64,000 bases of DNA from Paenalcaligenes suwonensis. Lineage in GTDB: Bacteria; Pseudomonadota; Gammaproteobacteria; Burkholderiales; Burkholderiaceae_B. The stretch spans positions 310,001 to 374,000 of the forward strand of contig NZ_JAANPV010000001.1 of the NCBI RefSeq assembly GCF_011290505.1, read 5' to 3'. A program made the translations under genes and the position numbers. This document shows, one piece after another, positions 16,377 to 36,414 of the stretch (within the stretch, counting starts at the first letter, position 1; each line of letters begins with the position of its first letter). Below the pieces are notes generated by a model that did not search any database, was not told the origin of the DNA, and was given only the letters and a program-made list of their open reading frames with translations.

Positions 16377-16402
16377 ATAAGCTTGCGATTGTAACGTTTT
16401 GA

Positions 16403-16436: not shown

Positions 16437-16532
16437 TGTATTTTGTACCTTAGGATGCAGTATTTGTGCGGATAAGCGGAGCAGCTGGCAGTACAATGTA
16501 GTCATCGTAGAGACTCTATTGGAAGAGAAGCA

Positions 16533-16994: not shown

Positions 16995-17004
16995 AAATAA
17001 CGAA

Positions 17005-18033: not shown

Positions 18034-18045
18034 AATATAAATAGT

Positions 18046-20171: not shown

Positions 20172-21213
20172 ATCTTATTATGAAAGAAATACCTTAAAAA
20201 AATTTTTTTATATTATATTTTCACCTATTGCTTATATTTTAGCCTTGATCCCAAAGAGAAAAGATTTGGTCTTGTATGGGTCAATGAATGGTTACTCTAT
20301 AGTAGATAATGCAAAATATGAATATCTAAGTAGCAATGATAAGGAAAAGTACTTTATAACTTTTAATCCTGATGTTGTAAATTCTTATCAAAAAACAAAA
20401 TTTAATGTTGTTTATGGGTGGTCTTTAAAAGGAATTTTCTTACAGATTAGAGCAGAAAAAATATATTTCACACATGGGTTATTTGATTTTTTCTCAATTT
20501 TAGTGATGGGGGCTGAAAAACATAACCTTTGGCATGGCGTTCCGTTGAAAGATATTGGCCCTGTTACAGATTGGTCTTCTGATAACAAGTTTATGCTTAA
20601 AATAAAAATCTTGTTCTACAGGATTTTTGCTCCAGCCTACTACATGACGTGTGATTATGTTTACTGTCCTTTTCCTAGTTTGAAAAAAAACTATAGTAAT
20701 TATTTTTGTGTTTCAAGACCAAAGATAATAATAAGAGAACAGCCTAGAAATTCTTATTTCAACGATGTAGTAATCCAGAAAAAAAGAAAAATACTTTTCG
20801 CTCCAACTCATAGAAGTTTGCAGTTCAAGAATTTTGATTTTGATTTGTATTTTAAAAAAATAAATCTAGTGAAAATTTCAAATTATTTAAAATCAATAAA
20901 TTATGATTTAGTGGTTAGGCCTCATCCTATTGATAAAGAGCTCTTTGTTTCTTTCTGTGATGTAAATAATATAGAAATTGATACTAGCTTAGATTTATAC
21001 GAGAGTTTGAGCTCTTACGAATTTGTTGTAACTGATTATTCTAGTATTTTTTTGGATTGTATGGAAAGGCAGTTATCTTGCTTTTTGGTTGCCCCTGATT
21101 ATAGAGAGTATAAAGACAGAGTTGGTATCAGTAATATTTTAGATTCATATTACTCAAATGATAATTTTTATAAAGATTTAGATTTTATAAAATCAAAATT
21201 AGTAGGGCCATAG
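20152..21213 (+). CDS. CDP-glycerol glycerophosphotransferase (TagB/TagF-like)
   Basis: This 353-residue enzyme transfers glycerol phosphate from CDP-glycerol to a lipid-linked acceptor at the cytoplasmic membrane face. Family motifs are visible in order: NLWHGVPLKDIG, FAPTHR, LVVRPHP and VTDYSSIFLDCM. A short hydrophobic stretch near residues 18-34 may anchor it to the membrane. With tagD in the same operon it completes the CDP-glycerol pathway, predicting glycerol phosphate in the polymer, either as a side substituent or in the backbone. It overlaps wzx by 20 bp and is followed after 3 bp by the polymerase gene. Whether it adds one unit (TagB-like) or many (TagF-like) cannot be told; its short length favours single addition. 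Confidence 0.87.
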   Translation: MKKREYKSYYERNTLKKFFYIIFSPIAYILALIPKRKDLVLYGSMNGYSIVDNAKYEYLSSNDKEKYFITFNPDVVNSYQKTKFNVVYGWSLKGIFLQIRAEKIYFTHGLFDFFSILVMGAEKHNLWHGVPLKDIGPVTDWSSDNKFMLKIKILFYRIFAPAYYMTCDYVYCPFPSLKKNYSNYFCVSRPKIIIREQPRNSYFNDVVIQKKRKILFAPTHRSLQFKNFDFDLYFKKINLVKISNYLKSINYDLVVRPHPIDKELFVSFCDVNNIEIDTSLDLYESLSSYEFVVTDYSSIFLDCMERQLSCFLVAPDYREYKDRVGISNILDSYYSNDNFYKDLDFIKSKLVGP

Positions 21214-21216
21214 GAA

Positions 21217-22497
21217 ATGCGATCTACAGATGCAAGACTAGCAGTGTTTTTTTTACTGCCTATTATTTTTGGGTTTTTTCAGAATTTCTTTTTTCTGCTG
21301 ATTAATTTCTATTTTGACCCAAGTAAGTATTTTTTAGTTTTAAAAGATTTTTATATTATCTTGGTTTGTTTGTTGGGTTCTTTTTATTGCTACTTTTTAA
21401 GAAGAGAGGGTCTTGGTCGGTATTCTATCCTTCTTTTGATTTTTATATTAATTCTTTCTTACTATCTTTTTGTTTCTATTTTTCTTGGGGTATACATTGA
21501 GTCATTTAGACAAATTTTGATTTTACCGTTAGCATTGATATATGGAGAAATTTTTTCGTCATCTTCAAGAAGTGATGGTTTGGTTAAAAAAATAGAAAAT
21601 ATTCTAGTTCCTGTGTTGATTTTTTTGATTATTAGCGGTTATGTAGAGTTATTTTTCTTGCATGATGCTACTGAATCCTTTTGGTCCATGATGAATTTTA
21701 AAGACCTGCTTAGTGTAAAAGGTATGGATAAGTGGGCTTATGGAGTAGGTGGGGTTTTAGGGAATTTTTATAGCTATGACTTGATCTCTTTTTTTGATAG
21801 ATCAGTAAGAAGAATGGTTTCTCTTTTTATTATTGAACCAACTATCTTTGGTCATATTGCTTCATTCTTAATGGTCTATGCATTTGTTAGTAAAAGATTT
21901 TTATTATTTATTTTGTCATCCCTGGCGGTTTTGCTGACCATAAGTAAAGGCGGAGTTTTAGTATTTTTTCTTTCGGTTATAATCTATAATTTTAAAAATA
22001 ATAATTTAACTAAATTAAGAAAAATAATTATTAATACATTTACGATAGCTATTTTTTCTGCCTTGGTGTTTTCTTTGTTGTATCTTGCTTTTTCTGGGAA
22101 AATAAATTCCGTTTATGTCAGGATTGAATCTTATATAAATATTTTTTTATCGTTGATTGAATATCCATTTGGGCAAGGGATTGGATCTTCGGGAAACTAT
22201 GGGAATTTATATGGGACTAATAAATTTAACATTTCTGAAAGCTACTTTGGTGCAATGGTAGGTCAGATTGGGATTTTTGCAATTTTTCTCTATGTTTCAT
22301 TTTTCTATTATTTTATTAAAACAAAAATTAGAAACTTAAATGGATTCTTGATTTCTGTATACTTGGTTTCTTTTTCCACTTTGGTTGTGTCTTTCTTTAC
22401 GGAATCGTCATTAACTTATTCAGGAACATTTTTTCTCTATGCTTTGCTGCCGTTTATTAATAAGAAAAATAGAGAGAGTATCTATATAAATGACTAA
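21217..22497 (+). CDS. wzy: O-antigen/capsule polymerase, Wzy-like
   Basis: This 426-residue protein is almost wholly hydrophobic, with 10-12 predicted membrane segments and one larger periplasmic loop in the second half (about residues 290-345, with YPFGQGIGSSGNYGNLYG). That architecture, together with its place between a flippase and glycosyltransferases, identifies it as the Wzy-type polymerase that joins repeat units in the periplasm. These proteins have little sequence conservation, so the call rests on topology and context. The ribosome site is ATAGGAA. Its 3' end overlaps the next gene by 8 bp. Base composition is extremely AT-rich. Confidence 0.78.
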   Translation: MRSTDARLAVFFLLPIIFGFFQNFFFLLINFYFDPSKYFLVLKDFYIILVCLLGSFYCYFLRREGLGRYSILLLIFILILSYYLFVSIFLGVYIESFRQILILPLALIYGEIFSSSSRSDGLVKKIENILVPVLIFLIISGYVELFFLHDATESFWSMMNFKDLLSVKGMDKWAYGVGGVLGNFYSYDLISFFDRSVRRMVSLFIIEPTIFGHIASFLMVYAFVSKRFLLFILSSLAVLLTISKGGVLVFFLSVIIYNFKNNNLTKLRKIIINTFTIAIFSALVFSLLYLAFSGKINSVYVRIESYINIFLSLIEYPFGQGIGSSGNYGNLYGTNKFNISESYFGAMVGQIGIFAIFLYVSFFYYFIKTKIRNLNGFLISVYLVSFSTLVVSFFTESSLTYSGTFFLYALLPFINKKNRESIYIND

Positions 22498-23635
22498 AAA
22501 TATTTTGTTTATTACAACTGTTTTATTTGATAAACCCTCTACTGGCGGAGAAGTTGCAACTAATTTCTTTACTGAATGGTTAAGCAATAATTTTAAAATT
22601 GATGTTTTAGGATATAGTAGAGATTCTGATGGTGGAGCTGTTAAAGGTTCTGTTGTTGATTCTATATCTATAGAAACTAATTTCAGAAATTTTTTCTTTA
22701 TTAAAAAATTTCTGATGGCTATTTTTTGTAATATGCCATACTCGTCATACAAGTTTTTTTCAAAAAAATATTTGGAATTGATTAAAGAAAAAATAGAAAA
22801 AAATAGTTATGATTATATTGTAGTTGAGCATGCACAGATGGCATGGGTGCTAAAGTATCTGGATCTGGGGAATTGTGTATTTATATCTCATAATGATGAG
22901 TCAAAGTTATATGAAGAGATAGCTGAAAACTCTGGATCTTTTTTTAAAAAGTTAATCTATAAAAGAGAAAGTAGGCTAATAAAGAAGATTGAGAGATTAG
23001 CAATTAACAGATCTTTATGCACAGTGGTTTTAACGGAAAGTGATAGAGATAGTTATGCTATTAATTATGGGAATGAAGGTAAGATAAAACAAGTCAACTT
23101 ACCTATACCTGAATTAGATAGAGATAAGTACAGAGAATGTAATATATTATATGATGTTGTTATGCTGGGGAGTTGGTCTTGGGATGCAAATAGAAGCGGG
23201 TTGCTTTGGTTCTTAGATAAGGTCTATCCTAGATTAGATAAAAATGTAAAGATAGGAATTGCAGGAAGAGGTTTTGAAAAAGACTTTTTTAATCAATATG
23301 AGAATATTGAATATGTAGGGTTTGTTGAATCATCTACTGAGTTTTTGCTATCGGGTAAGTGTATAGCAATTCCTTCTATTGAAGGTAGTGGGATACAAAT
23401 AAAAACCTTAGAGGCTATATCATTAGGTAAACCTGTGGTTTTAACAAATAAGGCAGTCAGAGGAATTGATGAGCTACCATCTAACCTTTTTGTAACTGAT
23501 GATCCTATTGATTTTTCTAATTCTATTAATGAAAATCATCATAAATCATTGACCATTAAGGATTTGAAATGGATTAATGATAGAAATATAAAATTTGATA
23601 AACAAATGGGTGATATTTTTATTTTTGGTGAATAG
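22490..23635 (+). CDS. Glycosyltransferase, GT4-like (group 1)
   Basis: This 381-residue cytoplasmic enzyme has the two-domain GT-B form. The N-terminal half opens with FITTVLFDKPSTGGEVATNF and holds VVEHAQMAWVL and ISHNDESKLYEEIAE. The C-terminal half carries VMLGSWSWDANRSGLLWF and the donor-binding block IEGSGIQIKTLEAISLGKPV with its conserved glutamate (E-x7-E-like). It adds one sugar of the repeat unit onto undecaprenyl-diphosphate-sugar; donor and acceptor are unknown, though dTDP-rhamnose or GDP-mannose are made by neighbouring genes. It overlaps the polymerase gene and lies 6 bp before a WecG-like gene. Confidence 0.83.
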   Translation: MTKNILFITTVLFDKPSTGGEVATNFFTEWLSNNFKIDVLGYSRDSDGGAVKGSVVDSISIETNFRNFFFIKKFLMAIFCNMPYSSYKFFSKKYLELIKEKIEKNSYDYIVVEHAQMAWVLKYLDLGNCVFISHNDESKLYEEIAENSGSFFKKLIYKRESRLIKKIERLAINRSLCTVVLTESDRDSYAINYGNEGKIKQVNLPIPELDRDKYRECNILYDVVMLGSWSWDANRSGLLWFLDKVYPRLDKNVKIGIAGRGFEKDFFNQYENIEYVGFVESSTEFLLSGKCIAIPSIEGSGIQIKTLEAISLGKPVVLTNKAVRGIDELPSNLFVTDDPIDFSNSINENHHKSLTIKDLKWINDRNIKFDKQMGDIFIFGE

Positions 23636-23641
23636 ATATTT

Positions 23642-24418
23642 ATGATCAGTTTTGATAGAATTAGTGTTTTAAATACTTACTTTGATCTACTTTCTGAAGA
23701 TGAGGTTTTGTCGATAATTTCTGGTTTAAATGATTTAAATGAAATGGGTTTTAGGTATATTGTTACTCCTAATGTAGATCATGTAGTGAGAAATTGTAGA
23801 TCTAGTGAGTATCAGAATCTTTATAAGGATTCGTGGCTAAGCCTGTGTGATAGTAGAGTGTTATATAGGTTGTTAACTAAAAAATCATACCCTATTAGAA
23901 GTGTAGTTACAGGTAGTGATTTGACTTTAAAGATTTTTGAAGAAATTATTGATGGTAGTGTAAATACAATATCTATTATAGGAGTAAGCGAAGAGACAGT
24001 AGATAAAGTAAAAGAAAAATTCAAACTACAGTTTGTAAATCACTATAATCCTAAAATGGGATTTATTAATGATGACATTGAGGTTAAGAAATGTTTGGAT
24101 TTTCTGTTAAATAATCCTTCTGATTTTGTTTTTTTTGCAGTTGGTTCCCCTCAGCAAGAAATCTTGGCGAACAAATTTTCAAAGCTGGAAGGATCTAAAG
24201 GGCTAGGGTTTTGCATAGGGGCTTCTCTTCTTTTCTTGTCTGGTGAAGAGAAAAGGGCACCTAAGATAGTTTCTACTATTGGTTTTGAGTGGTTGTTTAG
24301 ATTGTTTCAAAATCCTCGTAGGCTTTGGAAAAGATATTATGATAATCTTAAGATATTTTCTCTGGTTAGAGGTATTGAGTCTTTCTCTGGGGAGAGAGAT
24401 AAAAGATCGATAGATTAA
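23642..24418 (+). CDS. WecG/TagA/CpsF-family glycosyltransferase
   Basis: This 258-residue enzyme belongs to the GT26 family (WecG, TagA, CpsF). The N-terminal block VTPNVDHVVRNCRSSEY, the segment LSLCDSRVLYRLL, VTGSDLTLKIFEEI, VFFAVGSPQQEILANKF, IGASLLFLSGEEKRAP and the C-terminal GFEWLFRLFQNPRRLWKRYY are all characteristic. Known members transfer ManNAc or ManNAc uronate (TagA starts the teichoic acid linkage unit), so its presence beside TagD- and TagB-like proteins strengthens the teichoic-acid-like reading of this locus. It follows the GT4 gene by 6 bp and precedes manC by 20 bp. Confidence 0.88.
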   Translation: MISFDRISVLNTYFDLLSEDEVLSIISGLNDLNEMGFRYIVTPNVDHVVRNCRSSEYQNLYKDSWLSLCDSRVLYRLLTKKSYPIRSVVTGSDLTLKIFEEIIDGSVNTISIIGVSEETVDKVKEKFKLQFVNHYNPKMGFINDDIEVKKCLDFLLNNPSDFVFFAVGSPQQEILANKFSKLEGSKGLGFCIGASLLFLSGEEKRAPKIVSTIGFEWLFRLFQNPRRLWKRYYDNLKIFSLVRGIESFSGERDKRSID

Positions 24419-24438
24419 TGTTTATGTAGGTTCGGACA

Positions 24439-25854
24439 ATGAGAGTTATTCCTGTAATATTAGCCGGTGGTGTTGGTACGAGACTTTGGCCATTATCCAG
24501 AAAAAGCAAGCCTAAGCAGTTTCTAAAGTTGACTAATGATAAATTTTCAATGTTTCAAGAAACAGTCTTAAGGGCACAGGGTCTATCTAATAATTTGCCC
24601 ATAATAGTATGTGCTGATGAGCATAGATTTATTGTGGCAGAGCAATTGCGAGAAGTAGGAATAGATAGTGCTCAGATTATCCTTGAACCTATCGGAAAAA
24701 ATACAGCCCCAGCAATTACTCTAGCCGCATTGGCTGCTACAGACCAATGCAAGAATTCTATACTGATTGTTTTAGCAGCTGATCATTTTGTTTCTGATCA
24801 ACATGCATTTATATCTCAAGTAGCTAAAGGATTAGACCTTGCAGAACAAGGGTATATGGTCACGTTTGGGGTGTTGCCTGATTACGCTGAGGTAGGATAC
24901 GGCTATATCAAAAGTGGGGCACCAATCTCAGGCTCTGCCGGTTTTTTGGTGGATAGTTTTGTAGAAAAACCGACTCTGGCCTTAGCTGAAGAGTATGTGC
25001 TATCTAAAAAATATCTATGGAATAGCGGGATGTTCGCTTTCCAAAGTGATCTTTACCTTCGTGAACTTCAGAAATTTGAGCCTGTTATATTAGCAACTTG
25101 TCAGGATGCATTTAATGCCTCACAAATTGACATGGATTTTATACGGATCCCAGGTGATATTTTCGAACAGTCTCCGTCGCAGTCTATAGATTATGCTGTT
25201 ATGGAGCATACACAGAATGCAGCTGTTGTGCCTCTTTCGGTCGGCTGGAGTGACCTTGGCGCTTGGGAAGCCTTATGGAAAATTGCTGAGCAAGATGAAA
25301 ACAATAATGTTCTGATTGGTGACGTTTGTGTTGAGGATTCACAAGGTGTTTATGTGAAAGCAGACTCACGGCTAGTTGCTGTTGTTGGACTTAGAGATTT
25401 GGTTGTTGTAGAAACAAAAGATGCCGTTCTTATCTCTGAGCGGACGCAATCGCAAAAAGTTAAGACGGTTGTTGAAAGACTAAGAGAGCAGGGTAGGGAC
25501 GAATTTTCTGCACATAAACAAGTCTATCGCCCCTGGGGGACGTATGAGTCTATTGATGAGGGCGAGCGTTACCAAGTCAAGAGAATTACTGTACAGCCCG
25601 GCGGTAAATTGTCAGTCCAAATGCATCATCATCGTGCAGAGCATTGGATTGTTGTCAGTGGTGTGGCGCGAGTTACAAATGGCGATGAAACTTATTTAGT
25701 AACAGAGAATGAATCAACTTATATTCCGATCGGGCAGATTCACGCGCTTGAGAATCCTGGTGTTATTCCTTTAGAGTTGATTGAAGTGCAATCAGGTGCT
25801 TATTTAGGTGAGGATGATATTGTTCGCTTTGAGGATAGGTACGGTAGAATCTAA
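24439..25854 (+). CDS. manC: Mannose-1-phosphate guanylyltransferase / mannose-6-phosphate isomerase
   Basis: This 471-residue bifunctional type II enzyme makes GDP-mannose. The N-terminal pyrophosphorylase carries LAGGVGTRLWPLSRKSKPKQ and VEKPT, and the C-terminal cupin isomerase carries RPWGTYESIDEGERYQVKRI and the metal-binding LSVQMHHHRAEHWIVVSG. It is the last gene of the plus-strand run. Composition becomes less AT-rich along the gene, marking the right edge of the island. No manB, gmd or other mannose-derivative gene lies in the window, so phosphomannomutase must come from elsewhere. The ribosome site is weak; the start is set by the conserved N-terminus MRVIPVILAGG. Confidence 0.94.
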   Translation: MRVIPVILAGGVGTRLWPLSRKSKPKQFLKLTNDKFSMFQETVLRAQGLSNNLPIIVCADEHRFIVAEQLREVGIDSAQIILEPIGKNTAPAITLAALAATDQCKNSILIVLAADHFVSDQHAFISQVAKGLDLAEQGYMVTFGVLPDYAEVGYGYIKSGAPISGSAGFLVDSFVEKPTLALAEEYVLSKKYLWNSGMFAFQSDLYLRELQKFEPVILATCQDAFNASQIDMDFIRIPGDIFEQSPSQSIDYAVMEHTQNAAVVPLSVGWSDLGAWEALWKIAEQDENNNVLIGDVCVEDSQGVYVKADSRLVAVVGLRDLVVVETKDAVLISERTQSQKVKTVVERLREQGRDEFSAHKQVYRPWGTYESIDEGERYQVKRITVQPGGKLSVQMHHHRAEHWIVVSGVARVTNGDETYLVTENESTYIPIGQIHALENPGVIPLELIEVQSGAYLGEDDIVRFEDRYGRI

Positions 25855-25895
25855 GAGTAAACACTTTAAGCATAACGGATAGCGGAGAGATTTGA

Positions 25896-27278
25896 TCAGG
25901 GTTTGTTATTGACAAACCCTTTAAAAACGGTCAAGAAGATAATCTTCAAATCTAACCAGAGCGACCAGTTATTGATATACCACAGGTCGTACTCAACACG
26001 TTTTTGCATCTTCTCAATAGTATCGGTTTCACCCCTATAGCCGTTTACCTGTGCCCAACCAGTAATACCTGGTTTGACTTTGTGGCGCTTCATGTAGGAT
26101 TCAACCAAATCTTTGTAATGTTCATTGTGGGCCAGCGCGTGAGGGCGTGGTCCTACAATGGACATGCGTCCCTGTAGTACGTTGTAAAACTGGGGGAGCT
26201 CATCTAAGCTGGTTTTACGTAGAAAAGCACCTAAGCGAGTCACCCGAGGATCACCAAATTTGGCTTGGGTTATCTGACCAGCCACTTCGGTGTGTACTTC
26301 CATGGAGCGGAATTTATAAACTTTGAATTGTCGGCCATTAATCCCTGTTCGGTATTGCTTGAAAATGATGGGCCCTGTTGAAGTCATCTTGATCGCAATA
26401 GCGATTAGTAGACAGACTGGTAGTATCAGGATAGAGATAAGGCTACCAATAATAAGATCCTCTATTCGTTTAACTAGTCTCGCTGAACCCTCCATGGGGC
26501 TTAAGCTAATATCTAGCGCATAAAGTCCAGCAATCTGACTCACCCGATGATTTAAGAGGGGTAAGTCACCTAAGTCGGGTATGAAACGTACTTCTACAGT
26601 GAGGTGACGTAGGCTATGTAGAATTTTTTTAATAGATTCTCCTTCTTGTAAAGGTAAACACAGCCATACCTCATGTACATTTTGTTCACTTACTGTAGCA
26701 ATGAGCTTGTCGAACCATTGTTGATTGTTTTCTAGTGTGAGACGCTGACGTATTTCATAGCCTACACGTCCTAAATCAGGCAGGCTTTTACTGAGCTCGT
26801 CAGAAGGGATATGTCCTTCTACCACTAATACGTGCTTTTGGTTTCTACCTTGGGTTCGAGCAAAACGTAATAGTAGGTAGGTGCTTAGCCTAAAAAGGGT
26901 AACTGCGACTAAGGCATACAGAGCGGTAGTACTTAGCCAGAGGCGAGAATACTGGCCAGTAACTTTTGTAGCAACAGCAATACCTAACAGTAGAGCAAAA
27001 GCCAGTAACCAGCCTGTATAGACGCGGCCAAGTTGTTTTAGGAAGGGGCGGCCTCGCCATGAGCCATAGGTGTCCATACCCAACTGACAGATAGTGCCCA
27101 TTAAAGCTAAGGCTAATGTGGCAACTTCATAGCGAGAGCTCATGCTCCAGAAGTCAAAGCGCTGATGATAAGCAACGTATGCTGCGCCAATGACTAATGC
27201 AATATCAATAAGCCCGGCCAACAAGGCGAGGGGATAGCGTTCTGCAAGAATTGGAGCTGGAGAGTGTTTCTTGGACAT
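25896..27278 (-). CDS. wcaJ: Undecaprenyl-phosphate sugar-1-phosphate transferase, WcaJ-like
   Basis: This approximately 460-residue polyprenol-phosphate hexose-1-phosphate transferase starts the repeat unit on undecaprenyl phosphate at the inner membrane. It has four N-terminal helices (residues about 15-140), a cytoplasmic region, a further membrane segment (LIIGSLISILILPVCLLIAI) and the catalytic C-terminus with FKQYRTGINGRQFKVYKFRS, LRKTSLDELPQFYNVLQG and VGPRPHALAHNEHY. This is the long WcaJ/WbaP-like form. It faces the manC operon; their 3' ends are 41 bp apart. The start is taken at ATG 27278 (an in-frame GTG lies two codons earlier); neither has a clear ribosome site. It probably serves the polysaccharide made by the adjacent operon. 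Confidence 0.91.
   Translation of the reverse strand: MSKKHSPAPILAERYPLALLAGLIDIALVIGAAYVAYHQRFDFWSMSSRYEVATLALALMGTICQLGMDTYGSWRGRPFLKQLGRVYTGWLLAFALLLGIAVATKVTGQYSRLWLSTTALYALVAVTLFRLSTYLLLRFARTQGRNQKHVLVVEGHIPSDELSKSLPDLGRVGYEIRQRLTLENNQQWFDKLIATVSEQNVHEVWLCLPLQEGESIKKILHSLRHLTVEVRFIPDLGDLPLLNHRVSQIAGLYALDISLSPMEGSARLVKRIEDLIIGSLISILILPVCLLIAIAIKMTSTGPIIFKQYRTGINGRQFKVYKFRSMEVHTEVAGQITQAKFGDPRVTRLGAFLRKTSLDELPQFYNVLQGRMSIVGPRPHALAHNEHYKDLVESYMKRHKVKPGITGWAQVNGYRGETDTIEKMQKRVEYDLWYINNWSLWLDLKIIFLTVFKGFVNNKP
25898..25924. terminator. Possible terminator between manC and wcaJ
   Basis: AGGGTTTGT-TATTG-ACAAACCCT is a perfect 9-bp stem followed by TTT on the plus strand. It overlaps the last codons of wcaJ and lies 44 bp after the manC stop, so it could terminate the polysaccharide operon. 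Confidence 0.5.
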
Positions 27279-27577
27279 GCGCACAAATTTAGTAGGCTAA
27301 AACACATAGCCGAGGTCAGAGGATGACTGATTATAGAAGGGACATCGCGTGGCGGCCACTTAACTCTGCCCATTGATGACGCTTTATGACAATGTAACTA
27401 CTGTAAATGTCTTGTAGGGAGTAATTTTTTAGACTATTACACTGAGTTACAGGATTTCAAAATCAGCAAAAAGACCAAAACCCACGGCTTTTCTGGTGCT
27501 ACGATAAGCGTTTTACTGGGTAGTGCAAGTGTGATGCTGCCAACAAAGCGGCAGTGTGTCGTGATGGAGAGTGCTCT

Positions 27578-27977: not shown

Positions 27978-28964
27978 ATGGGGCTAGTCCCGCTTGAAAT
28001 CAGCGCTATGGGCAAGGCGCTACCTTCTACGCCGGTGTTGTCATCTGAATTGGATGCGCGGTTGGGTAAGGCTGAAGGCTATGTTCAAAAACGTTCGGGG
28101 ATTGTGTCGCGATCCTTGGCCGATAGTCATGTGTCACAAGCAGAATTAGGTGCCGAGGCGCTACATAATGCATTGCGCACTGCAGGGTGGAAAATGGCAG
28201 ATGTGGATCTGCTCATTAGTGCTTCTGCTATTCCTGTGCAGGCGCTGCCCTGCACGGCGACGCATATTTTGCGGGCGGCTCAGGCGCCAGATGGCACGCC
28301 CGGTTTTGATGTGAATGTCAGTTGTGCCAGTTTTGTGGCGGCACTAGAGGTGGCTAGCGGTTTATTGCAAATTGGCCGCTATCAACGCATTGCTATTGTG
28401 AGCGCTGAATTGGCATCGCGCGGTTTGAATTGGGATGATGAAGAGTCTTCCTATTTATTTGGCGATGGCGCGGCGTGTGCGTTGGTGCAAAAAGGCGATG
28501 GGTCTAAGGGGATTCTGGCAACGCGCTTAGAGAACCATGTGCTAGAAGGTGATTTTTGCGAAATCCGTGCTGGTGGTACGCGAGCCAACCCCCGTGCGGG
28601 TATGCAGGAGCACGACTTTTATTTCAAGATGCAGGGGCGTAAGGTGTTTAAGATCGCCTCGCGTTTTATTAATGACTATCAAGACGCGTTATTGGCGCAA
28701 GCCGGTGTGACGCTACGTGATGTGGATTTAGTGGTTCCGCATCAGGCCAGCCATTTAGCCATGCAGCATATACACAAGCAGTTGGATATTCCTACGCATA
28801 AGTTGATGGATATTTATGCGACGCACGGGAATCAGGTGGCAGCTTCTGTGCCGACGGCATTGTACGAAGCACTGCACCAGCAGCGGTGTAAAGCCGGTGA
28901 TGTGGTGATGTTGATTGCCACCGCCGCCAGCGTGTCGTTTGCAGGCATGGTACTGAAACTGTGA
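27978..28964 (+). CDS. 3-oxoacyl-ACP synthase III-like condensing enzyme (FabH/OleA-like)
   Basis: This 328-residue thiolase-fold enzyme condenses acyl thioesters. The catalytic triad of KAS III proteins is present: Cys116 (VNVSCASF), His255 (VVPHQASHL) and Asn285 (THGNQVAAS). FabH has HQAN where this protein has HQAS, and the segment GFDVNVSCASFVAALEVA is closer to the OleA and secondary-metabolite branch than to housekeeping FabH. It opens a six-gene cluster whose following genes encode an NAD-dependent reductase, a metallo-hydrolase, an adenylate-forming ligase, a PAP2 enzyme and a hydroxylase. No acyl carrier protein gene is nearby, so it probably draws on fatty acyl-CoA or acyl-ACP from primary metabolism. 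Exact reaction unknown. Confidence 0.85.
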   Translation: MGLVPLEISAMGKALPSTPVLSSELDARLGKAEGYVQKRSGIVSRSLADSHVSQAELGAEALHNALRTAGWKMADVDLLISASAIPVQALPCTATHILRAAQAPDGTPGFDVNVSCASFVAALEVASGLLQIGRYQRIAIVSAELASRGLNWDDEESSYLFGDGAACALVQKGDGSKGILATRLENHVLEGDFCEIRAGGTRANPRAGMQEHDFYFKMQGRKVFKIASRFINDYQDALLAQAGVTLRDVDLVVPHQASHLAMQHIHKQLDIPTHKLMDIYATHGNQVAASVPTALYEALHQQRCKAGDVVMLIATAASVSFAGMVLKL

Positions 28965-28971
28965 GCAAGCG

Positions 28972-30009
28972 ATGACACAACATAGTGGCGCAGCAGTGCT
29001 TCCTAAGGTGTTGGTCACGGGGGCAACCAGTGGGCTGGGGCGTAATGCCGCATTGTGGTTGCAGCAAGCAGGCTATGCTGTTGTCGGTGTGGGTCGTGAT
29101 AAAGCAGCGGGTGCTGCCCTAGCGCAGCAGGGCATACAGTTTGTGGCCTGCGATTTAGCCACCGCAGCGCCTAGCCAGCTAGATGCTTTGGTGCAATCGG
29201 TAGATTGGGTGTGGCATTGTGCCGCCTTGTCGTCGCCGTGGGGGGCTAGGGCTGATTTTGTAGCCGCTAATGTACTGGCGACCGAAAAACTGGCTCAGGC
29301 GGCGGGGCAGGCACAGGTGCAAAGGTTTGTGCATATTTCTACGCCGTCGCTGTATTTTGATTTTCAGGCTAGACGCAATATCCCAGAGACGTTTATTGCG
29401 GCGCGTTTTGCTAACGCCTATGCGGAAACCAAGTTTATGGCGGAGGGCTGTATTCAACAGGCGCAACAGCGTTATCCGACTACGCGTTTTACGTTATTGC
29501 GTCCACGTGGAATTTTTGGCCCACACGATCGAGTGATTGTGCCGCGTTTGCAAGAGCAGTTAGCGCGTTTTAATGGTGTGCTTAAGTTGCCGCGTGGTGG
29601 ACAAGCCTGCGTGGATTTAACTTTTGTACTGAATGTGGTGCATGCCATGCACTTGGCCAGTACTCAGCCAGCATTGCCTCCGGCCGCGGTGTACAACATT
29701 AGCAATCAAGAGCCTATGATGCTGCGTGAGGTGATTGAGGCGTTATTTGTAAAAGCGTTAGGGCGACATGTACGTATACAAGCGGTGCCGTATCCGCTGC
29801 TCTATACGGTTGCCGCAGGGATGGAAGCCACGGCTAGCCTCACACATAAAGAACCTATGTTGACGCGTTATAGCGTGGGGGCACTGAGTTTTGATATGAC
29901 CTTATGCTCAACCAAGGCGCAGCAAGAACTGGGGTATTACCCGCGCTATAGCATGCAAGAGGCCATCGCCTTAACCGCTGACTGGCTGCGACAGCAGCCA
30001 CAAAGGTAA
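28972..30009 (+). CDS. NAD(P)-dependent epimerase/dehydratase (OleD-like SDR)
   Basis: This 345-residue extended short-chain dehydrogenase has the nucleotide motif VTGATSGLGRNAALWLQQAG at residues about 15-34 and the catalytic YxxxK in NAYAETKFMAEG; TLLRPRGIFGPHD and VYNISNQEPMMLREVIEAL match the 3-beta-hydroxysteroid-dehydrogenase/NSDHL-like branch that includes OleD. OleD reduces the beta-keto acid made by OleA. Being 7 bp after the condensing-enzyme gene, it most likely reduces that enzyme's product. No membrane segment is evident. Substrate is inferred from context only. Confidence 0.82.
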   Translation: MTQHSGAAVLPKVLVTGATSGLGRNAALWLQQAGYAVVGVGRDKAAGAALAQQGIQFVACDLATAAPSQLDALVQSVDWVWHCAALSSPWGARADFVAANVLATEKLAQAAGQAQVQRFVHISTPSLYFDFQARRNIPETFIAARFANAYAETKFMAEGCIQQAQQRYPTTRFTLLRPRGIFGPHDRVIVPRLQEQLARFNGVLKLPRGGQACVDLTFVLNVVHAMHLASTQPALPPAAVYNISNQEPMMLREVIEALFVKALGRHVRIQAVPYPLLYTVAAGMEATASLTHKEPMLTRYSVGALSFDMTLCSTKAQQELGYYPRYSMQEAIALTADWLRQQPQR

Positions 30010-30013
30010 GAAG

Positions 30014-30850
30014 ATGGCTGTTTTACATACGTACGAGGTGGGGTACTGCATGCACCCAGCGTGTGTGGCGCTAAAGGGAGGCGGCTTTAAGTTGTGTCGC
30101 TTTCCGGCGCGTGCTTATGTGATTGAAGTGGGGCGTGATTTATGGGTGTGGGATACCGGTTATGCCAGCCATTTTCACAGTCATACCGCTAGAGGGGTGT
30201 ATCGCTTATACCCCGCAGTGACCCCGGTACATTTTAAAAATGATGAAGCGCTGATTCTACAGTTGGCCGAACACGGCATAGGCCGTGAAGACATACGTGG
30301 CATTGTAGTGTCGCATTTCCACGGTGATCACATTGCAGGGCTGCGAGATTTCCCCGGCGTTGAAGTGTATGCCAGCCAACCGGGCTGGGATTACTACAAG
30401 TTGCTGAAAGGGCTGCGTGCCGTACGTAAAGGCTTTGTACCAGGTTTAATTCCGGAGGACTTCGAGTCGCGCTTAGGCTTTGTAGAAGAGTGGGAGTACG
30501 GTGCGTTACCGGCTGAGCTGGCTCCGTTTGAGGAGGGCTGGGCATTGCCGCACAGTAAAGGTGAAGTCTTTGTGGTGTCGTTGCCAGGACATGCGCGTGG
30601 GCATTTGGGCGTGTTTATACGTACCGCCGCTGGTTGGATATTGTTGGCTGCCGATGCCGCATGGGCTCCTGAAAACTACACAGAATTACGTCAACCTGCT
30701 TGGATATCACGTTTAATCATGGACGATGCCAAGCACATGTTCCAGACCTTACAAAAACTGCACGAGCTGCATAAGCGTGGCAAGGTGAAGATTCAGTTGG
30801 CGCACGAGGGGGGGATTCCTTCTACTTCAGTCACGGAGTCTGCGCTATGA
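30014..30850 (+). CDS. MBL-fold metallo-hydrolase (lactonase-like)
   Basis: This 278-residue protein carries the metal-binding signature VVSHFHGDHIAGL (HxHxDH), a later metal ligand in SLPGHARGHLGVF, and the bridging aspartate in LLAADAAW, which together define the metallo-beta-lactamase fold of the lactonase/glyoxalase II kind. Members cleave esters, thioesters or lactones. In this cluster it occupies the place that OleB, an alpha/beta hydrolase acting on beta-lactones, has in ole operons. It follows the reductase gene by 4 bp and overlaps the ligase gene by 4 bp (ATGA). The reaction is not established. Confidence 0.85.
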   Translation: MAVLHTYEVGYCMHPACVALKGGGFKLCRFPARAYVIEVGRDLWVWDTGYASHFHSHTARGVYRLYPAVTPVHFKNDEALILQLAEHGIGREDIRGIVVSHFHGDHIAGLRDFPGVEVYASQPGWDYYKLLKGLRAVRKGFVPGLIPEDFESRLGFVEEWEYGALPAELAPFEEGWALPHSKGEVFVVSLPGHARGHLGVFIRTAAGWILLAADAAWAPENYTELRQPAWISRLIMDDAKHMFQTLQKLHELHKRGKVKIQLAHEGGIPSTSVTESAL

Positions 30851-32172
30851 CGCAAAGTGTGCAGACGTTATGGCAGTACTACAAAGCAAAACGGTTACAG
30901 AAACGTTTACGGGCGTGGTCGCGTGAACAGTTAGAACAGTATCAACAGCAACAACTACAGCGCTTTATGCAACGCGTGTTGGTGCGTAGCCCGTACTTTA
31001 GTGCGTATGTGGGCCAGCCGTTACCCACATGGCCGTTGATGAATAAAGCGCTCATGATGGCGCAGTTTGATCAGATGAATACGGCAGGCTTGCAGCGTGA
31101 TGTAGTGCTGGAAAATGCGTTGCGTGCAGAGACTAGCCGTGATTTCTCGCAGTTAGTGTCTGAATACAGTGTGGGGTTGTCGTCGGGTACGTCTGGTACA
31201 CGTGGCTTGTTTGTGACCAGTAAAGCTGAGCGTGCCCTCTGGTCCGGCACGATTTTGTCTAAGCTGCTGCCTAAAGGCTTGTTTGCTGGTGAACGGGTGG
31301 CATTGTTCTTGCGTGCTGACAATGCGCTCTATCAGAACGTGAACAGCCGTTTTTTAAGCTTCCGATTTTTTGATTTGTTGGCAAATTTTGATGAGCAGTG
31401 CGAGGCATTGCAACAGTATCAACCTACGATTTTGGTGGCACCGGCCCAAGTGTTGGTAGCGCTGGCAGAAAAAGCGCAGCAAGGTGGCATTACCTTACAG
31501 CCCGCACGGGTGATTTCCGCCGCCGAGGTGTTGAGTCCCCACGACAAACAACGTTTACAACACCAGTTTGGTGATGTGGCCGAGGTGTATCAAGCAACTG
31601 AGGGCTTTTTGGGGGCTACCTGCGAGTTAGGTGCAATGCACTTAAATGAAGAGTCGCTGTACATAGAAACTGAATGGGTAGACCAAACACGTTTTGTTCC
31701 TATCATTACCGATTTCAGGCGTACTACGCAGCCTGTAGTGCGCTATAGGCTAGACGATGTGTTGCACGATGGCGGGTGTGCGTGCCTGTGTGGCAGGCCT
31801 ACGCGTGTGATTACCCACATAGAAGGACGGGCTGACGACCAATTAAGGTTGCCCGGCAGCCAGCAGCCGTGGGTAACGATATTTGCCGATGCATGTAATA
31901 GGGTATTGGCCCACACGTTGCCGTGGGATGCGGATTATGTGCTCGAGCACGTCATGCCAGACGAGGGCGAAAACACCGTGTTACTGCGTTTTTACGCCCC
32001 GCTTACTGCACCGCAATTGCAGCAGGTGCACGATGCACTGTGGTCGTGGCTAGCCACTCAGAACGTGGATGTATCGCTGTTGCGGTGGGAAGGTGTGGCC
32101 CAACCCCCAGAGCGCGATTTTCTGCGGAAAAAACGCCGTATTGTGCGTGTGACAAAGCAGGTGGTAGCGTGA
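30847..32172 (+). CDS. Adenylate-forming ligase, PaaK / F390-synthetase (CoF) related
   Basis: This 441-residue protein is related to phenylacetate-CoA ligase and coenzyme F390 synthetase. The phosphate-binding loop is at residues 112-120 (SSGTSGTRG), the aromatic/acid motif appears as YQATEGFLG, and VVRYRLDDVL is the A7-like block. A cysteine-containing segment (GGCACLCGRPTRVITHIEGR) is typical of this group. The N-terminal 100 residues are rich in Gln and Arg. It would activate a carboxylate with ATP, in the position that OleC (a beta-lactone synthetase) has in ole clusters. It overlaps the hydrolase gene upstream (ATGA) and the PAP2 gene downstream (GTGA), implying translational coupling. 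The acceptor, whether CoA, an amine or an internal hydroxyl, cannot be read. Confidence 0.8.
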   Translation: MTQSVQTLWQYYKAKRLQKRLRAWSREQLEQYQQQQLQRFMQRVLVRSPYFSAYVGQPLPTWPLMNKALMMAQFDQMNTAGLQRDVVLENALRAETSRDFSQLVSEYSVGLSSGTSGTRGLFVTSKAERALWSGTILSKLLPKGLFAGERVALFLRADNALYQNVNSRFLSFRFFDLLANFDEQCEALQQYQPTILVAPAQVLVALAEKAQQGGITLQPARVISAAEVLSPHDKQRLQHQFGDVAEVYQATEGFLGATCELGAMHLNEESLYIETEWVDQTRFVPIITDFRRTTQPVVRYRLDDVLHDGGCACLCGRPTRVITHIEGRADDQLRLPGSQQPWVTIFADACNRVLAHTLPWDADYVLEHVMPDEGENTVLLRFYAPLTAPQLQQVHDALWSWLATQNVDVSLLRWEGVAQPPERDFLRKKRRIVRVTKQVVA

Positions 32173-32804
32173 GTGTGTTACCCACAGAGAAGCAATCGCT
32201 GTTCTACCGCTTGTGGTGGATGGCGTGGGGCTGGGGCACGGTAGGGGTGATTTACTCCCTCACTGACTACTGGCAAGGAGCGGGGAACGTGGTGCATGAA
32301 ACTTGGGTAGATAGGGCGGTGGGGTACGATCAAACGGCTATTTGGGGATATTTGTCTTTTTTCTTGCTTATACCTGCTGCGTACCTATTTTCTGACATCT
32401 CCAGAGTTAAAACGTTGGCGCGACAAATGCAGTGGGGGGCCTTGTTTTGCGGGGTAATCTACCTGCTGTATCCCACAACGATAGTGTATCCACCCGTAGA
32501 AACAGGAACCTGGGCAGGGCAAGTGGTGGCCTGGTTGTTACATCTGGATTCCAGTCAAAACTGTGTGCCTTCGCTGCATATCTTGTTATCGTTATTAGCG
32601 GTATATGCGGTTTCGCACGCTAAGCGTTGGTGGGTACAAGGCTGCTACGTGGGCTGGTTGGTGTGGGTGGGTTATACCGTTTTGCAGTTAAAGCGGCATT
32701 TTTTTATCGATGTGTTGGCCGCCATAGCAATAGCCGTCGTATTGATTGCCTTGAGCCATTATGCTGGTGCAGGGAAAGCAGAGGTGCAGAGTGACGCAGA
32801 TTAA
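32169..32804 (+). CDS. PAP2/AUR1-like membrane phosphatase or phosphotransferase
   Basis: This 211-residue protein has five or six membrane segments and the two catalytic motifs of the PAP2 superfamily in the inositol-phosphotransferase (AUR1/PAP2_3) form: PSLH at residues 134-137 and KRHFFID at 175-181, holding the two histidines and the aspartate. Such enzymes remove or transfer phosphate or phospho-headgroups on lipids at the outer face of the inner membrane. The chosen start is GTG at 32169, which overlaps the ligase stop as GTGA and has AGGTGG upstream; a much longer open frame exists upstream but only reads through the ligase gene in another frame. It probably finishes or remodels the lipid made by the cluster. 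Confidence 0.8.
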   Translation: MSVLPTEKQSLFYRLWWMAWGWGTVGVIYSLTDYWQGAGNVVHETWVDRAVGYDQTAIWGYLSFFLLIPAAYLFSDISRVKTLARQMQWGALFCGVIYLLYPTTIVYPPVETGTWAGQVVAWLLHLDSSQNCVPSLHILLSLLAVYAVSHAKRWWVQGCYVGWLVWVGYTVLQLKRHFFIDVLAAIAIAVVLIALSHYAGAGKAEVQSDAD

Positions 32805-33903
32805 TCTAATGGTTTTTCCTCTCGCGTTTATGCTGTTTTTTATTGTGGCCGAAATGTTTGTGCTGCAATGGCAGGGTAGGGGCTCAGAGTACAGCTGGAA
32901 AGACACCATCTTGAACCTAAATTCTGGGCATGTGGTGCTATGGCTGTTCCGTGGTTTTGAAGTATTTGCCTTTGGCTGGGTAGCCAGCCATTGGAGCCTA
33001 GGCGTTATTTCTAGCTGGCCTACCGTATGGCAGTGGGTGTTTGGCTTTATTGTGTGGGACTTTTGTTTCTACGTACTGCATTACACGCATCACAAAATAG
33101 GGTTGCTGTGGGCCATTCATGAGGTGCATCACGAAGGGCGTTATTTCAACGTGTCGTTGGGGGCGCGTAACTCGTGGTATTCGTCGTTAAGCTCGGTTCC
33201 ATTCTTTATTTGGATGGCATTTTTGGGGCTACCGGTAGAAATATTCCTCGTGGTCTCTACCTTCCATTATGGCGTGCAGTTGTTTAACCATAATGCGGTG
33301 ACACCGCGTACCCCATGGCTGGAAGCATTCATGGTGACGCCTAACCATCACCGCGTGCACCATGGCGATCATCCGGTGTATCACGACACCAATTTTGGTG
33401 GCACGTTTCTCATCTGGGATAAGTTGTTTGGTACCTATAAAACGGCACAGCCTGAATACCCCTTGTGCTATGGCGTAACGGGGCACGATGCCTCTACCAA
33501 CCCTGTACACACCAATCACGACCCACTGCGTCGCTGGTTACGAAAACCGGTGTTACCACGCTCAGCCATGACGGTTGAATGGCCAGCATGGGTGATTGCG
33601 ACAGCCGGGGTGGGGCTGTTTGTCGTGGTGCTGTTGTATGTGGCGGGGGATGGCTACTGGGAGACGTGGCAGCAATACTCGATTTTTGCACTATTGGTAC
33701 TAGGGACTGTCGCCATAGGGGGGCTTTCAGAGGGTAGAAACTGGGCGCGTTGGGGCTGGTTTGCAGTAGTAGCGGGGCTAGCCATTTGGGTCATAGGCGT
33801 ATTGGCGTGGCACCAATGGTATTGGTGGTTATGTTTGGGTGGTTTAGGCCTACATGCCTTGTGGGTGCTGTGGCATAGACCGTCGCCAGTAGCGTCATCA
33901 TGA
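32791..33903 (+). CDS. Fatty acid hydroxylase / sterol desaturase superfamily protein
   Basis: This approximately 370-residue integral membrane di-iron enzyme has the three histidine clusters of the superfamily: HYTHH (residues 97-101), HEVHH (110-114) and HHRVHH (186-191), embedded in hydrophobic segments. After the catalytic domain come four more membrane helices (about residues 270-365), making it longer than the usual 250-300 residues. The family hydroxylates or desaturates lipid chains with oxygen. The preferred start is GTG 32791 with AGAGG six bases before it, overlapping the PAP2 gene by 14 bp; ATG 32761 and 32809 are alternatives. It is the last gene of the lipid cluster, 27 bp before the usher gene. 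Confidence 0.83.
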   Translation: MTQINLMVFPLAFMLFFIVAEMFVLQWQGRGSEYSWKDTILNLNSGHVVLWLFRGFEVFAFGWVASHWSLGVISSWPTVWQWVFGFIVWDFCFYVLHYTHHKIGLLWAIHEVHHEGRYFNVSLGARNSWYSSLSSVPFFIWMAFLGLPVEIFLVVSTFHYGVQLFNHNAVTPRTPWLEAFMVTPNHHRVHHGDHPVYHDTNFGGTFLIWDKLFGTYKTAQPEYPLCYGVTGHDASTNPVHTNHDPLRRWLRKPVLPRSAMTVEWPAWVIATAGVGLFVVVLLYVAGDGYWETWQQYSIFALLVLGTVAIGGLSEGRNWARWGWFAVVAGLAIWVIGVLAWHQWYWWLCLGGLGLHALWVLWHRPSPVASS

Positions 33904-33930: not shown

Positions 33931-36414
33931 ATGAATAAGCTATTTCGTGTTCTCGTGCTGTGTGGTGTGGTGAGTGCAGGTGGGTTGCTCACGGCAGGTA
34001 GCGCGGTGTCGCAGCCATTGCCTGATTGGGTAGCACAAGAAGTAGAACAACTTAATCAAGCCGACGTGATGGTGCCGGATGGCGGGGTGATTCCCGGTAG
34101 TTATGGCATGCACTTGTACGTGAATAATAAGCTGGTCGATGTGCTGGAGATTCCATTTGCACAAAAGGGCCAGGGCGACCAACGTAAACTGCTGCCGTGT
34201 TTATCTGAAGACACCTTGAGCAATGCCGGGATTTGGTTATTCAAACCCGCTACGTTTCAAAGCGGTGAACGTGCGTGCTTAGACTTAGATAAGCTACGCT
34301 ACATTTCCTACAAAGCCGATTGGGATGATCGTTCGTTGCTGCTAACAGTGCCGCAAACCTACGTAGATAGCCACAAGCTGCGTCAGGTGGAAGAGGGGAT
34401 GTGGGACGATGGAATAGACAATGTCTTCCTGAACTACGCTTACTCGGCTTCACAAAATGCCAATAAACGAGAGCAATATTTGAACGTACGCCCCGGCATT
34501 AATATTGGGGCATGGCGCTACCGGAATTACTCGGTTTGGCATAAAGACGATGTGAAGCAAAGCTGGGAAAACCTAAACAACACCCTGTCACGAAACATAC
34601 GTTCGTGGCACAGCGAGTTAGTGTTGGGCGATGTGTATTCCTCTGCCACAGTGTTTGACTCTATACAGTTTAGGGGCGTGATGCTGCAAAGTAGCGAGCA
34701 GATGCGCCCCGTCTCTGAGCGTAATTATGTGCCGGCAGTAAGCGGGGTTGCCAGCACAGACGCGCGGGTAACCATACGGCAAAACGGCCAAGTGGTGTAC
34801 CAAAGTTCTGTGCCCGCTGGGCACTTTACGATCACTGATTACTCACCGGCGAGTTATGGTGGGAATCTGCACGTTACTGTGCAAGAGTCTGACGGTAGTA
34901 CCAATGAGTTTATTGTGCCTTTTGCCTCCGTACCTATCTTGGAGCGTAAAGGGGGCGTGAAATACAGTGTTTCGGCTGGCCGCTACTTGGAAGATAGTTG
35001 GGATGGTGCGCACCACAATGTGGGGCAGGCCGAGCTAGTGTATGGCCTAAGCGACTACACCACGCTATATGGTGGGGCGCAGGTAACTGGTGATTACCGT
35101 GCTGCATCCATGGGGCTAGGGTTGAACTTAGGGCAGTTTGGCGCATTGTCTAGCGGGGTGAAGTATGCGCGATATGACACCCGTCACGAGGGTACACGTA
35201 GTGGGCGCGCGTTGGTCGTAGACTATGCCAAGGGAGTCACGAGCACGAACACGCGTTTCTCGTTTAGCTTGCAACAGCAACTGGATAAAAATTACCTGAA
35301 CTTTAAAGATGCTATTGCTTTTGATAGACCTGCCGATCAGGAAAAAAACCGTATAGGTGCATCGGTGGTGCAAGGCTTACCCGATAGTTTGGGGGCACTT
35401 AACGCCGACATGGTGTATCAACGATTTAGCAGCGGGCGTGATATTCGTTCGTTAAGTGTGGGCTACACGGGCACCTACAAAGGCATCAATTATGGTTTGT
35501 ATTTCCGGCGCTATCAGGACACTGGCCGCGAGCGCAGTGCCTTGGCATCGGCCGAGCGTGGCCGTAACTCTAGCGAAGTGATGCTGACTCTCAGTATTCC
35601 GCTGTCGCGCAAAGGGGAAAATAGTCTGCGGGCAGGCTATACGGTGAGCCACAACAACGAGGGTGGTGTAGATCAAAGTGTGCGCTTAGATGGTGATGCC
35701 TATGACAAACGACTGGGTTGGGGTGTGCAACAAGGTTTTGGTACGCAGGGTGTGGGTAATTACGGTGGTGTAAACGCGGTTTATAAAGGTGGTTTTGGTG
35801 AGGTCAATGCGGCGTACTCGTATGCACGGCATAATCACAGCACCTTGAGTTACGGGGTAATGGGCGCGGTGACGGCGTCCGAATATGGCGTGGTGTTTTC
35901 CCACCCGTTGTCCGAGGCCAATGTGATGGTTATTGCCCCCGACGCCGAAGGCATTCGGGTGTTAAATGGGGTGAATGTACATACTGATGAAGATGGCTTG
36001 GCTGTAGTGCCCGGCTTGTCGGCCTACCGCAATAACACCATTAGGTTAGATAGCCGTTCATTGCCTCTGAATGTAGACGTGAGCAGGCTCTCGCAGACCG
36101 ATTTGTATCCTACTAAAGGGGCGTTGGTGCTGGCCGAGTTTCAGACTACGCGGGGGTATAAAATCATGCTGCTGCTGGAAAATCAGGAAGTACCTTCGGG
36201 AGCCAGGGCCTATCTAGAAGGGGAGCTAGGTCAGTATTTCACCGTAGGGGCTTTTAACCAGTTATACATGGTGTCGCCATCCCCTGCGGGAAAGCTCGCG
36301 ATCTTTTGGATGGAAGGCGAGACCTGGCAGCAGTGCTTTGTGGATTTTGATGTGTCCAATACCGAAACCCATAATGACATACATCTGGTTAAAGCGAATT
36401 GTCAGCCTGAGTAG
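33931..36414 (+). CDS. Outer-membrane fimbrial usher protein (FimD/PapC type), orphan
   Basis: This 827-residue protein has a signal peptide (about residues 1-28, ending in AVSQP) and the usher architecture: an N-terminal domain (SYGMHLYVNNKLVDV, LLPCLSEDTLSNAGIW), a large beta-barrel with plug (NYVPAVSGVASTDARVTIRQ, SSVPAGHFTITDYSP, DGSTNEFIVPFASVPILER), and C-terminal domains with PTKGALVLAEFQTTRGYKI. Ushers assemble chaperone-delivered pilins at the outer membrane. Two points are odd: no chaperone or pilin gene lies anywhere in the window, and the FN..FL motif that normally starts the mature protein and binds the chaperone is absent, being replaced by a short acidic segment. Its last 26 bp overlap the convergent ABC-F gene. 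It lies 27 bp behind the lipid cluster. Confidence 0.9.
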   Translation: MNKLFRVLVLCGVVSAGGLLTAGSAVSQPLPDWVAQEVEQLNQADVMVPDGGVIPGSYGMHLYVNNKLVDVLEIPFAQKGQGDQRKLLPCLSEDTLSNAGIWLFKPATFQSGERACLDLDKLRYISYKADWDDRSLLLTVPQTYVDSHKLRQVEEGMWDDGIDNVFLNYAYSASQNANKREQYLNVRPGINIGAWRYRNYSVWHKDDVKQSWENLNNTLSRNIRSWHSELVLGDVYSSATVFDSIQFRGVMLQSSEQMRPVSERNYVPAVSGVASTDARVTIRQNGQVVYQSSVPAGHFTITDYSPASYGGNLHVTVQESDGSTNEFIVPFASVPILERKGGVKYSVSAGRYLEDSWDGAHHNVGQAELVYGLSDYTTLYGGAQVTGDYRAASMGLGLNLGQFGALSSGVKYARYDTRHEGTRSGRALVVDYAKGVTSTNTRFSFSLQQQLDKNYLNFKDAIAFDRPADQEKNRIGASVVQGLPDSLGALNADMVYQRFSSGRDIRSLSVGYTGTYKGINYGLYFRRYQDTGRERSALASAERGRNSSEVMLTLSIPLSRKGENSLRAGYTVSHNNEGGVDQSVRLDGDAYDKRLGWGVQQGFGTQGVGNYGGVNAVYKGGFGEVNAAYSYARHNHSTLSYGVMGAVTASEYGVVFSHPLSEANVMVIAPDAEGIRVLNGVNVHTDEDGLAVVPGLSAYRNNTIRLDSRSLPLNVDVSRLSQTDLYPTKGALVLAEFQTTRGYKIMLLLENQEVPSGARAYLEGELGQYFTVGAFNQLYMVSPSPAGKLAIFWMEGETWQQCFVDFDVSNTETHNDIHLVKANCQPE

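What the first reader, a model, noticed from the sequence alone, without database searches (positions are those of the whole stretch)
27978..33903. Six-gene Ole-like lipid cluster with unfamiliar ligase and hydrolase
Six tightly packed, overlapping genes encode a KAS III-like condensing enzyme (Cys116/His255/Asn285), an SDR reductase of the OleD kind, an MBL hydrolase, a PaaK/F390-synthetase-like ligase, a PAP2/AUR1-like enzyme and a fatty acid hydroxylase. Known: OleA-D condense, reduce, lactonise and cleave fatty acyl chains to long olefins. Inferred: here the OleC step is taken by a different ligase family and the OleB step by a metallo-hydrolase, and two further membrane enzymes modify the product, which may be a hydroxylated or phospho-linked non-canonical lipid. 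The product and function appear undescribed as far as I can tell.
Basis: partly seen in the sequence, partly recalled or inferred. Interest (0 to 1): 0.78.

Follow-up and report, generated by a model that had tools for sequence, protein, structure and literature searches.

The report
Widespread uncharacterised lipid gene cluster
Six adjacent genes probably build and decorate an unknown membrane lipid; four of them keep together, nearly always in the same order, in quite different bacteria including some E. coli, so a whole lipid pathway may still be waiting to be described.

The parts
27978..28964 (+). KAS: ketoacyl synthase III-fold condensing enzyme, MxnB/CorB-like (nearest curated model PRK07204); Cys116/His255/Asn285; motif Q88-A-L90-P
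28972..30009 (+). SDR: extended NAD(P)-dependent reductase, OleD/3-beta-HSD-like; Ser123, Tyr150, Lys154
30014..30850 (+). MBL: metallo-beta-lactamase-fold hydrolase, AHL-lactonase-like; His101/His103/Asp105/His106, His193, Asp214, His264
30847..32172 (+). LIG: TIGR02304 adenylate-forming (F390-synthetase/PaaK-like) ligase with SSGTSG loop and C-terminal Lys428
32169..32804 (+). PAP2: PAP2_3/AUR1-like membrane protein, probably a phospho-head-group transferase; PSLH and RHxxxD motifs; GTG start overlapping the ligase stop
32791..33903 (+). FAH: fatty acid hydroxylase / sterol desaturase family membrane di-iron enzyme; start uncertain (ORF opens at ATG 32761, likely GTG 32791)

Best explanation
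A dedicated lipid pathway with a conserved core and exchangeable finishing modules. KAS loads one acyl chain on Cys116 and condenses it with a second acyl thioester, giving a two-chain, alpha-branched beta-ketoacyl thioester. MBL hydrolyses that thioester, SDR reduces the ketone to a hydroxyl, and LIG activates the free carboxylate as an acyl-adenylate for transfer. In this genome the membrane protein PAP2 (AUR1-like) then puts a phospho head group on the lipid, or less likely removes a phosphate, and FAH hydroxylates a chain. Elsewhere desaturases, glycosyltransferases (GT21, GT1) or ATP-grasp, GNAT and Rieske enzymes are added or take that place. Shown here: the gene families, the conserved catalytic residues, the conserved order, the module swaps and the predicted fold of PAP2. 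Inferred: every reaction, the substrates and the product.
Confidence: 0.45

Rival explanations
1. One-chain FabH-like pathway: KAS elongates an acyl-CoA with malonyl-ACP, SDR reduces the 3-keto group, MBL releases a free 3-hydroxy acid, and LIG reactivates it for attachment to a lipid or surface sugar.
For: KAS keeps the FabH triad and has a hydrophobic residue where FabH has Phe and OleA has Glu; it matches FabH models at 212-229 bits, under their cut-offs; a clade of the cluster KAS with FabH is not rejected.
Against: The cell already has FabH, and normal fatty acid synthesis already makes 3-hydroxyacyl-ACP (recalled), so a second set would gain little. MxnB and CorB score higher than any FabH in the PDB and share the Q-A-[VL]-P stretch.
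Confidence: 0.25
2. One reading: KAS = OleA, SDR = OleD, LIG makes a beta-lactone in place of OleC, MBL opens or decarboxylates it in place of OleB.
For: SDR is nearest OleD; LIG is adenylate-forming; MBL resembles lactonases.
Against: No OleA Glu in 92 of 92 ungapped rows; LIG shows no similarity to a control OleC; MBL occurs without the ligase in G213. MBL enzymes are hydrolases, and none is known to me to decarboxylate a beta-lactone (recalled).
Confidence: 0.12
3. The core makes a small diffusible signal or antibiotic, such as an alpha-pyrone or butenolide, and not a membrane lipid.
For: The relatives MxnB and CorB make alpha-pyrones; PpyS, another two-chain ketosynthase, makes the photopyrone signals (PMC4578411, first of three parts read); MBL resembles enzymes that degrade lactone signals.
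Against: The partners are membrane lipid-modifying families (PAP2, FA hydroxylase, FA desaturase, GT21), with PAP2 and FAH together in 57 of 80 loci. I saw no regulator family recurring beside the core, but most recurring neighbours were not identified.
Confidence: 0.09

Closest known systems
MxnB / CorB ketosynthases (myxopyronin, corallopyronin)
   Same: Best solved-structure matches of the KAS (202 and 175 bits); same Q-A-[VL]-P stretch and CHN triad; they join two acyl chains (PMC5724707, passages and one section read).
   Different: Those act with modular polyketide synthases and close a pyrone ring; here there is no PKS, and a reductase, a hydrolase and a ligase follow. Grouping in the tree is weak.
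OleABCD olefin / beta-lactone pathway
   Same: KAS III fold, an OleD-like reductase and an adenylate-forming enzyme in one operon.
   Different: No OleA Glu; LIG unlike OleC; no alpha/beta-hydrolase OleB among the six.
TIGR02304 'F390 synthetase-related protein'
   Same: LIG is a member, 467 bits over a cut-off of 251.9.
   Different: The family name rests on resemblance to coenzyme F390 synthetase; I found no tested function in the ten papers that hold the term 'F390 synthetase' (passages of four read, six seen in the listing only).
Ceramide head-group transferases (AUR1 / inositol phosphorylceramide synthase, sphingomyelin synthase-related protein) and other PAP2 enzymes

Membership tests
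OleA (Ole pathway) | Catalytic glutamate followed by proline (E117 in X. campestris OleA; all but two of the OleA proteins aligned in PMC7064751, passages read) | tested here: not met
   Position 90 is Leu 86, Ile 6, Glu 0 in 94 rows, 2 gapped; both control OleA have Glu
OleA (Ole pathway) | Passes the curated model that the control OleA passes (PRK09258) | tested here: not met
   Window KAS 86.9 bits, cut-off 285; control OleA of L141 463 bits
OleA (Ole pathway) | Groups with OleA in a tree | tested here: not met
   OleA split from all the rest at 100/100; OleA and FabH sit on long branches there
OleC (Ole pathway) | Homology of the ligase to OleC | tested here: not met
   LIG against the OleC of control locus L141 (1008 bits over 900): best E 6.5; PF00501 only 22.7 bits, cut-off 29.9
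OleB (Ole pathway) | Alpha/beta-hydrolase beta-lactone decarboxylase | tested here: not met
   None of the six matches an alpha/beta-hydrolase family at E<=0.01; MBL is PF00753
OleD (Ole pathway) | Passes the curated OleD model cut-off | tested here: not met
   153 bits, cut-off 580, though its best curated match; in a tree the cluster SDRs lie on the other side of a weak branch (79/90) from OleD and six other OleD-like proteins
MxnB/CorB two-chain ketosynthases | Non-acidic residue at the OleA Glu position, Q-A-x-P stretch, CHN triad | tested here: met
   Window KAS: Q88-A89-L90-P91 and triad; Q and P in 92 of 92 ungapped rows; the Ala is Ala in 77 of 80 ungapped rows and Pro in some distant ones
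MxnB/CorB two-chain ketosynthases | Condenses two long acyl thioesters | not testable with these tools
   Needs purified enzyme
MxnB/CorB two-chain ketosynthases | One clade with MxnB/CorB apart from FabH | tested here: inconclusive
   53/86 support with one orphan KAS inside; other groupings borderline
TIGR02304 | Score over the curated cut-off | tested here: met
   467 against 251.9 bits
PAP2 superfamily (PAP2_3) | Pfam gathering score and catalytic motifs | tested here: inconclusive
   Window 26.5 against 27 bits, 45 of 45 members of A4 match at E<=0.001; PSLH, H177 and D181 invariant in 45 rows; model closest to PAP2 enzymes
AUR1 / sphingomyelin-synthase type head-group transferase | Fold closest to these transferases | tested here: inconclusive
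AUR1 / sphingomyelin-synthase type head-group transferase | Transfers a phospho head group to a lipid hydroxyl | not testable with these tools
   Needs an enzyme assay or lipid analysis
Fatty acid hydroxylase (PF04116) | Gathering score and histidine boxes | tested here: met
   87.3 against 31 bits; H91, H94, H95, H104, H107, H108, H181, H184, H185 invariant in 38 rows

The most novel reading that the evidence does not exclude
A previously undescribed class of two-chain lipids, functionally like ceramides or short mycolates but built by a KAS III head-to-head condensation instead of serine palmitoyltransferase or Pks13. Its head group would be chosen by an exchangeable module (AUR1-like phospho-transfer, GT21/GT1 sugar, or ATP-grasp/GNAT amide), and it would be made by enterobacteria including about an eighth of complete E. 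coli genomes, pseudomonads, Burkholderiales, Bacillota and fusobacteria.
Probability: 0.34. Interest if true: 0.87.

Novelty: new variant of a known kind. Interest (0 to 1): 0.66.

Why it matters
A four-enzyme core found in three phyla without a known product marks a missing lipid pathway. At least 80% of its seven-gene version is in 671 of 5426 complete E. coli genomes, seen between narI and tRNA-Tyr in one strain and between narI and purU in another, in a species whose lipids are thought to be well known; and a carrier is at hand as a soil pseudomonad (L046). A direct test is possible: delete one gene, compare lipids. If the product is a two-chain lipid with exchangeable head groups, it would be a bacterial counterpart to sphingolipids and mycolates with a different founding reaction.

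Tried and rejected
Rejected: OleA membership (Glu absent). Rejected: MBL as OleB substitute (present without this ligase in G213). Rejected: KAS as the housekeeping FabH (separate gene). Rejected: crcB, 13 bases upstream, as part of the system; among the loci searched it is near the cluster only in the window's own and in the same-genus locus L127. Considered and not used: a Tn5 hit in a 'coenzyme F390 synthetase' of Pseudomonas syringae pv. actinidiae with reduced virulence score (PMC9823363, passages); its locus tag lies near that of an anthranilate synthase gene, so I cannot say that it belongs to this cluster. Led nowhere: sequence searches of the PDB for FAH (no hit at E<=1); ten paper searches, of which only 8, 28, 42 and 56 listed any paper, and no listed title or passage that I read describes the cluster. 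Eleven weaker KAS hits (E 2.7e-49 to 9.4e-46) were not inspected; I take them for FabH. L160, fetched, was not examined. Rows dropped: the KAS trees used 30 cluster sequences and 24 plus G213 (six rows of the first tree left out, two of them for long branches); the SDR tree used 17 cluster sequences plus G213; A4 and A5 hold 45 and 37 rows of the 66 and 59 in hand.

I raised the best explanation from 0.42 to 0.45, the novel case from 0.30 to 0.34 and interest from 0.64 to 0.66, and lowered the signal-molecule rival from 0.10 to 0.09.

Full report
WHAT IS THERE. Six + strand ORFs fill 27978-33903 without internal stops. Spacing is 7 bases between KAS and SDR, 4 between SDR and MBL, a 4-base overlap of MBL and LIG, a 4-base overlap of LIG and PAP2 (GTG start at 32169), and PAP2 and FAH overlap or nearly touch depending on the FAH start. 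Upstream is crcB, and beyond it polysaccharide genes; downstream is a fimbrial usher. The genome has its own FabH elsewhere.

FAMILIES. KAS: PF08541/PF08545, best NCBIfam PRK07204 at 349 bits, under its cut-off of 402. SDR: best NCBIfam OleD, 153 bits against a cut-off of 580. MBL: PF00753, best curated matches AHL lactonases, far under their cut-offs. LIG: TIGR02304, 467 bits against 251.9. PAP2: just under Pfam's cut-offs on its own, but 45 of 45 members of the alignment match PAP2_3. FAH: PF04116, 87 bits, and the ornithine-lipid hydroxylase OlsE model at 66 bits, cut-off 475.

KAS, SDR, MBL and LIG stand in this order on one strand in 76 of 80. Of the four exceptions, L048, L053 and L064 lack a KAS match, and L087 is a contig of 5799 bases whose ligase match starts at base 173. 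An independent sample of 398 Pseudomonadota genomes, the window's own included, gave 10 with the ligase at E<=1e-30, 7 of them over the cut-off; all 10 have the core in order, the three under the cut-off too. From the other side, KAS found 22 of 398 genomes at E<=1e-45: the 11 strongest are these 10 plus G213; the other 11 were not inspected. In a class sample of 274, three genomes had a KAS hit at E<=1e-50: the window's own, G621 with the full core, and G506 with an orphan KAS and no other cluster gene within the 18 kb read. Results against strict linkage are therefore G213 (no ligase), G506 (orphan), three loci without KAS, a split cluster on a Pseudomonas plasmid (L005) and a lone ligase on another (L007). 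Beyond Pseudomonadota the core is on Paenibacillus and Pontibacillus plasmids and in a Fusobacterium record with KAS moved to the end. In the window's genus 2 of 11 genomes, some of them incomplete, carry the ligase over its cut-off, and 2 of 61 relatives in all. In E. coli 671 of 5426 complete genomes hold at least 80% of a 7.3-kb query with the seven-gene version, which lies between narI and tRNA-Tyr in UPEC 26-1. This is patchy, as for a horizontally moved or often lost trait.

MODULES. Among the 80 loci, PAP2 and FAH are both present in 57, with a PF00487 desaturase in 53 of these; GT21 in 10, with GT1 in 9; PAP2+FAH+desaturase and GT21+GT1 together in 3; none of these modules in 9; the other 7 have PAP2 alone (5), with a desaturase (1) or with ATP-grasp (1). 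More distant loci carry ATP-grasp with Rieske (L124, L125, L126), GNAT with Rieske (L122, L123; by eye an ATP-grasp ORF follows on the other strand), ATP-grasp with GNAT (L004, L008), ATP-grasp alone (L006), or GT21 (L117, G213). L121 and L146 show none of the modules searched for. The window has PAP2 and FAH but no desaturase. The swapping of finishing enzymes around a fixed core suggests that the core makes a common lipid scaffold that different bacteria decorate differently (inference).

CATALYTIC RESIDUES. Over 94-100 rows: KAS C116 92 of 92 ungapped, H255 and N285 94 of 94; SDR Y150 and K154 98 of 98, S123 97 of 97; MBL H101, H103, D105, H106 97 of 97, H193, D214, H264 98 of 98; LIG S112, G114, E252, D304, R328, K428 100 of 100. 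These enzymes look active.

WHAT THE KAS IS. Position 90, which aligns with the OleA glutamate and with the Val of MxnB/CorB (PMC4578411, first of three parts read, names PpyS Glu105, OleA Glu117 and MxnB/CorB Val94), is Leu in 86, Ile in 6, gapped in 2 and never Glu. The KAS of two loci whose OleD passes its curated cut-off has Glu there; in one of them OleA, OleC and OleD were confirmed with curated models and the OleB-position ORF looks like a haloalkane dehalogenase, under the cut-off. The paper suggests that MxnB and CorB can do without the glutamate because the alpha-carbon lies between two carbonyls. If the same holds here, the second substrate is a beta-ketoacyl or malonyl thioester. 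The shared Q-A-[VL]-P stretch and the best PDB scores favour MxnB/CorB over FabH, but the tree does not settle it.

HOW IT MAY WORK. KAS joins two chains; MBL frees the acid; SDR reduces the ketone; LIG activates the acid; PAP2 and FAH finish the lipid. G213, with KAS-MBL-SDR-GT21-f20-GT1 and no TIGR02304 ligase in the genome at E<=0.001, suggests that three enzymes already give an alcohol that can be glycosylated, and that MBL does not need the ligase's product. Another ligase family in G213 is not excluded, and its SDR is only 29% identical. All reactions are inferred.

LITERATURE. Ten searches of an open-access library listed no paper that by title or by the passages read describes the cluster. 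'F390 synthetase' occurs in 10 papers; I read passages of four, none on this cluster, and saw the other six only in the listing. Preprints are not held and subscription journals mostly not, so prior description cannot be excluded.

VERDICT. A real and widespread gene system, misread only in part. A new variant of the two-chain condensation kind on present evidence, possibly a new lipid class.

Noticed in passing
   Followed up: partly
L071 16131-16742; L117 4079-4726 (Fusobacterium vincentii record): The ~200-aa protein f20 beside GT21 in enterobacteria and G213 matches no Pfam or NCBIfam family at the limits used. A ~215-aa ORF at the same place in Fusobacterium looks alike by eye, but tblastn at 1e-6 did not link the two.
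   Followed up: partly
L164 2683-9564 (E. coli UPEC 26-1): Seven-gene version with an extra acyl-CoA desaturase between narI and tRNA-Tyr; at least 80% of the query in 671 of 5426 complete E. coli genomes.
   Followed up: partly
   Followed up: no
L125 10250-11263: Rieske protein beside the core with a weak match to the sterol 4-methyl oxygenase SdmA model (75 bits, cut-off 600); the SDR also weakly matches SdmB.
   Followed up: no
window 16001-27284: Low-GC stretch (28-40% from 16001 to 26000) reaching into polysaccharide genes: WecG/TagA-type glycosyltransferase, GMP/PMI enzyme and, at 25896-27284 (-), a WcaJ-type transferase.
   Followed up: no
window 33931-36414: Outer membrane usher gene of a chaperone-usher fimbria directly after the cluster; by eye also beside it in the same-genus locus L127.
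   Followed up: no
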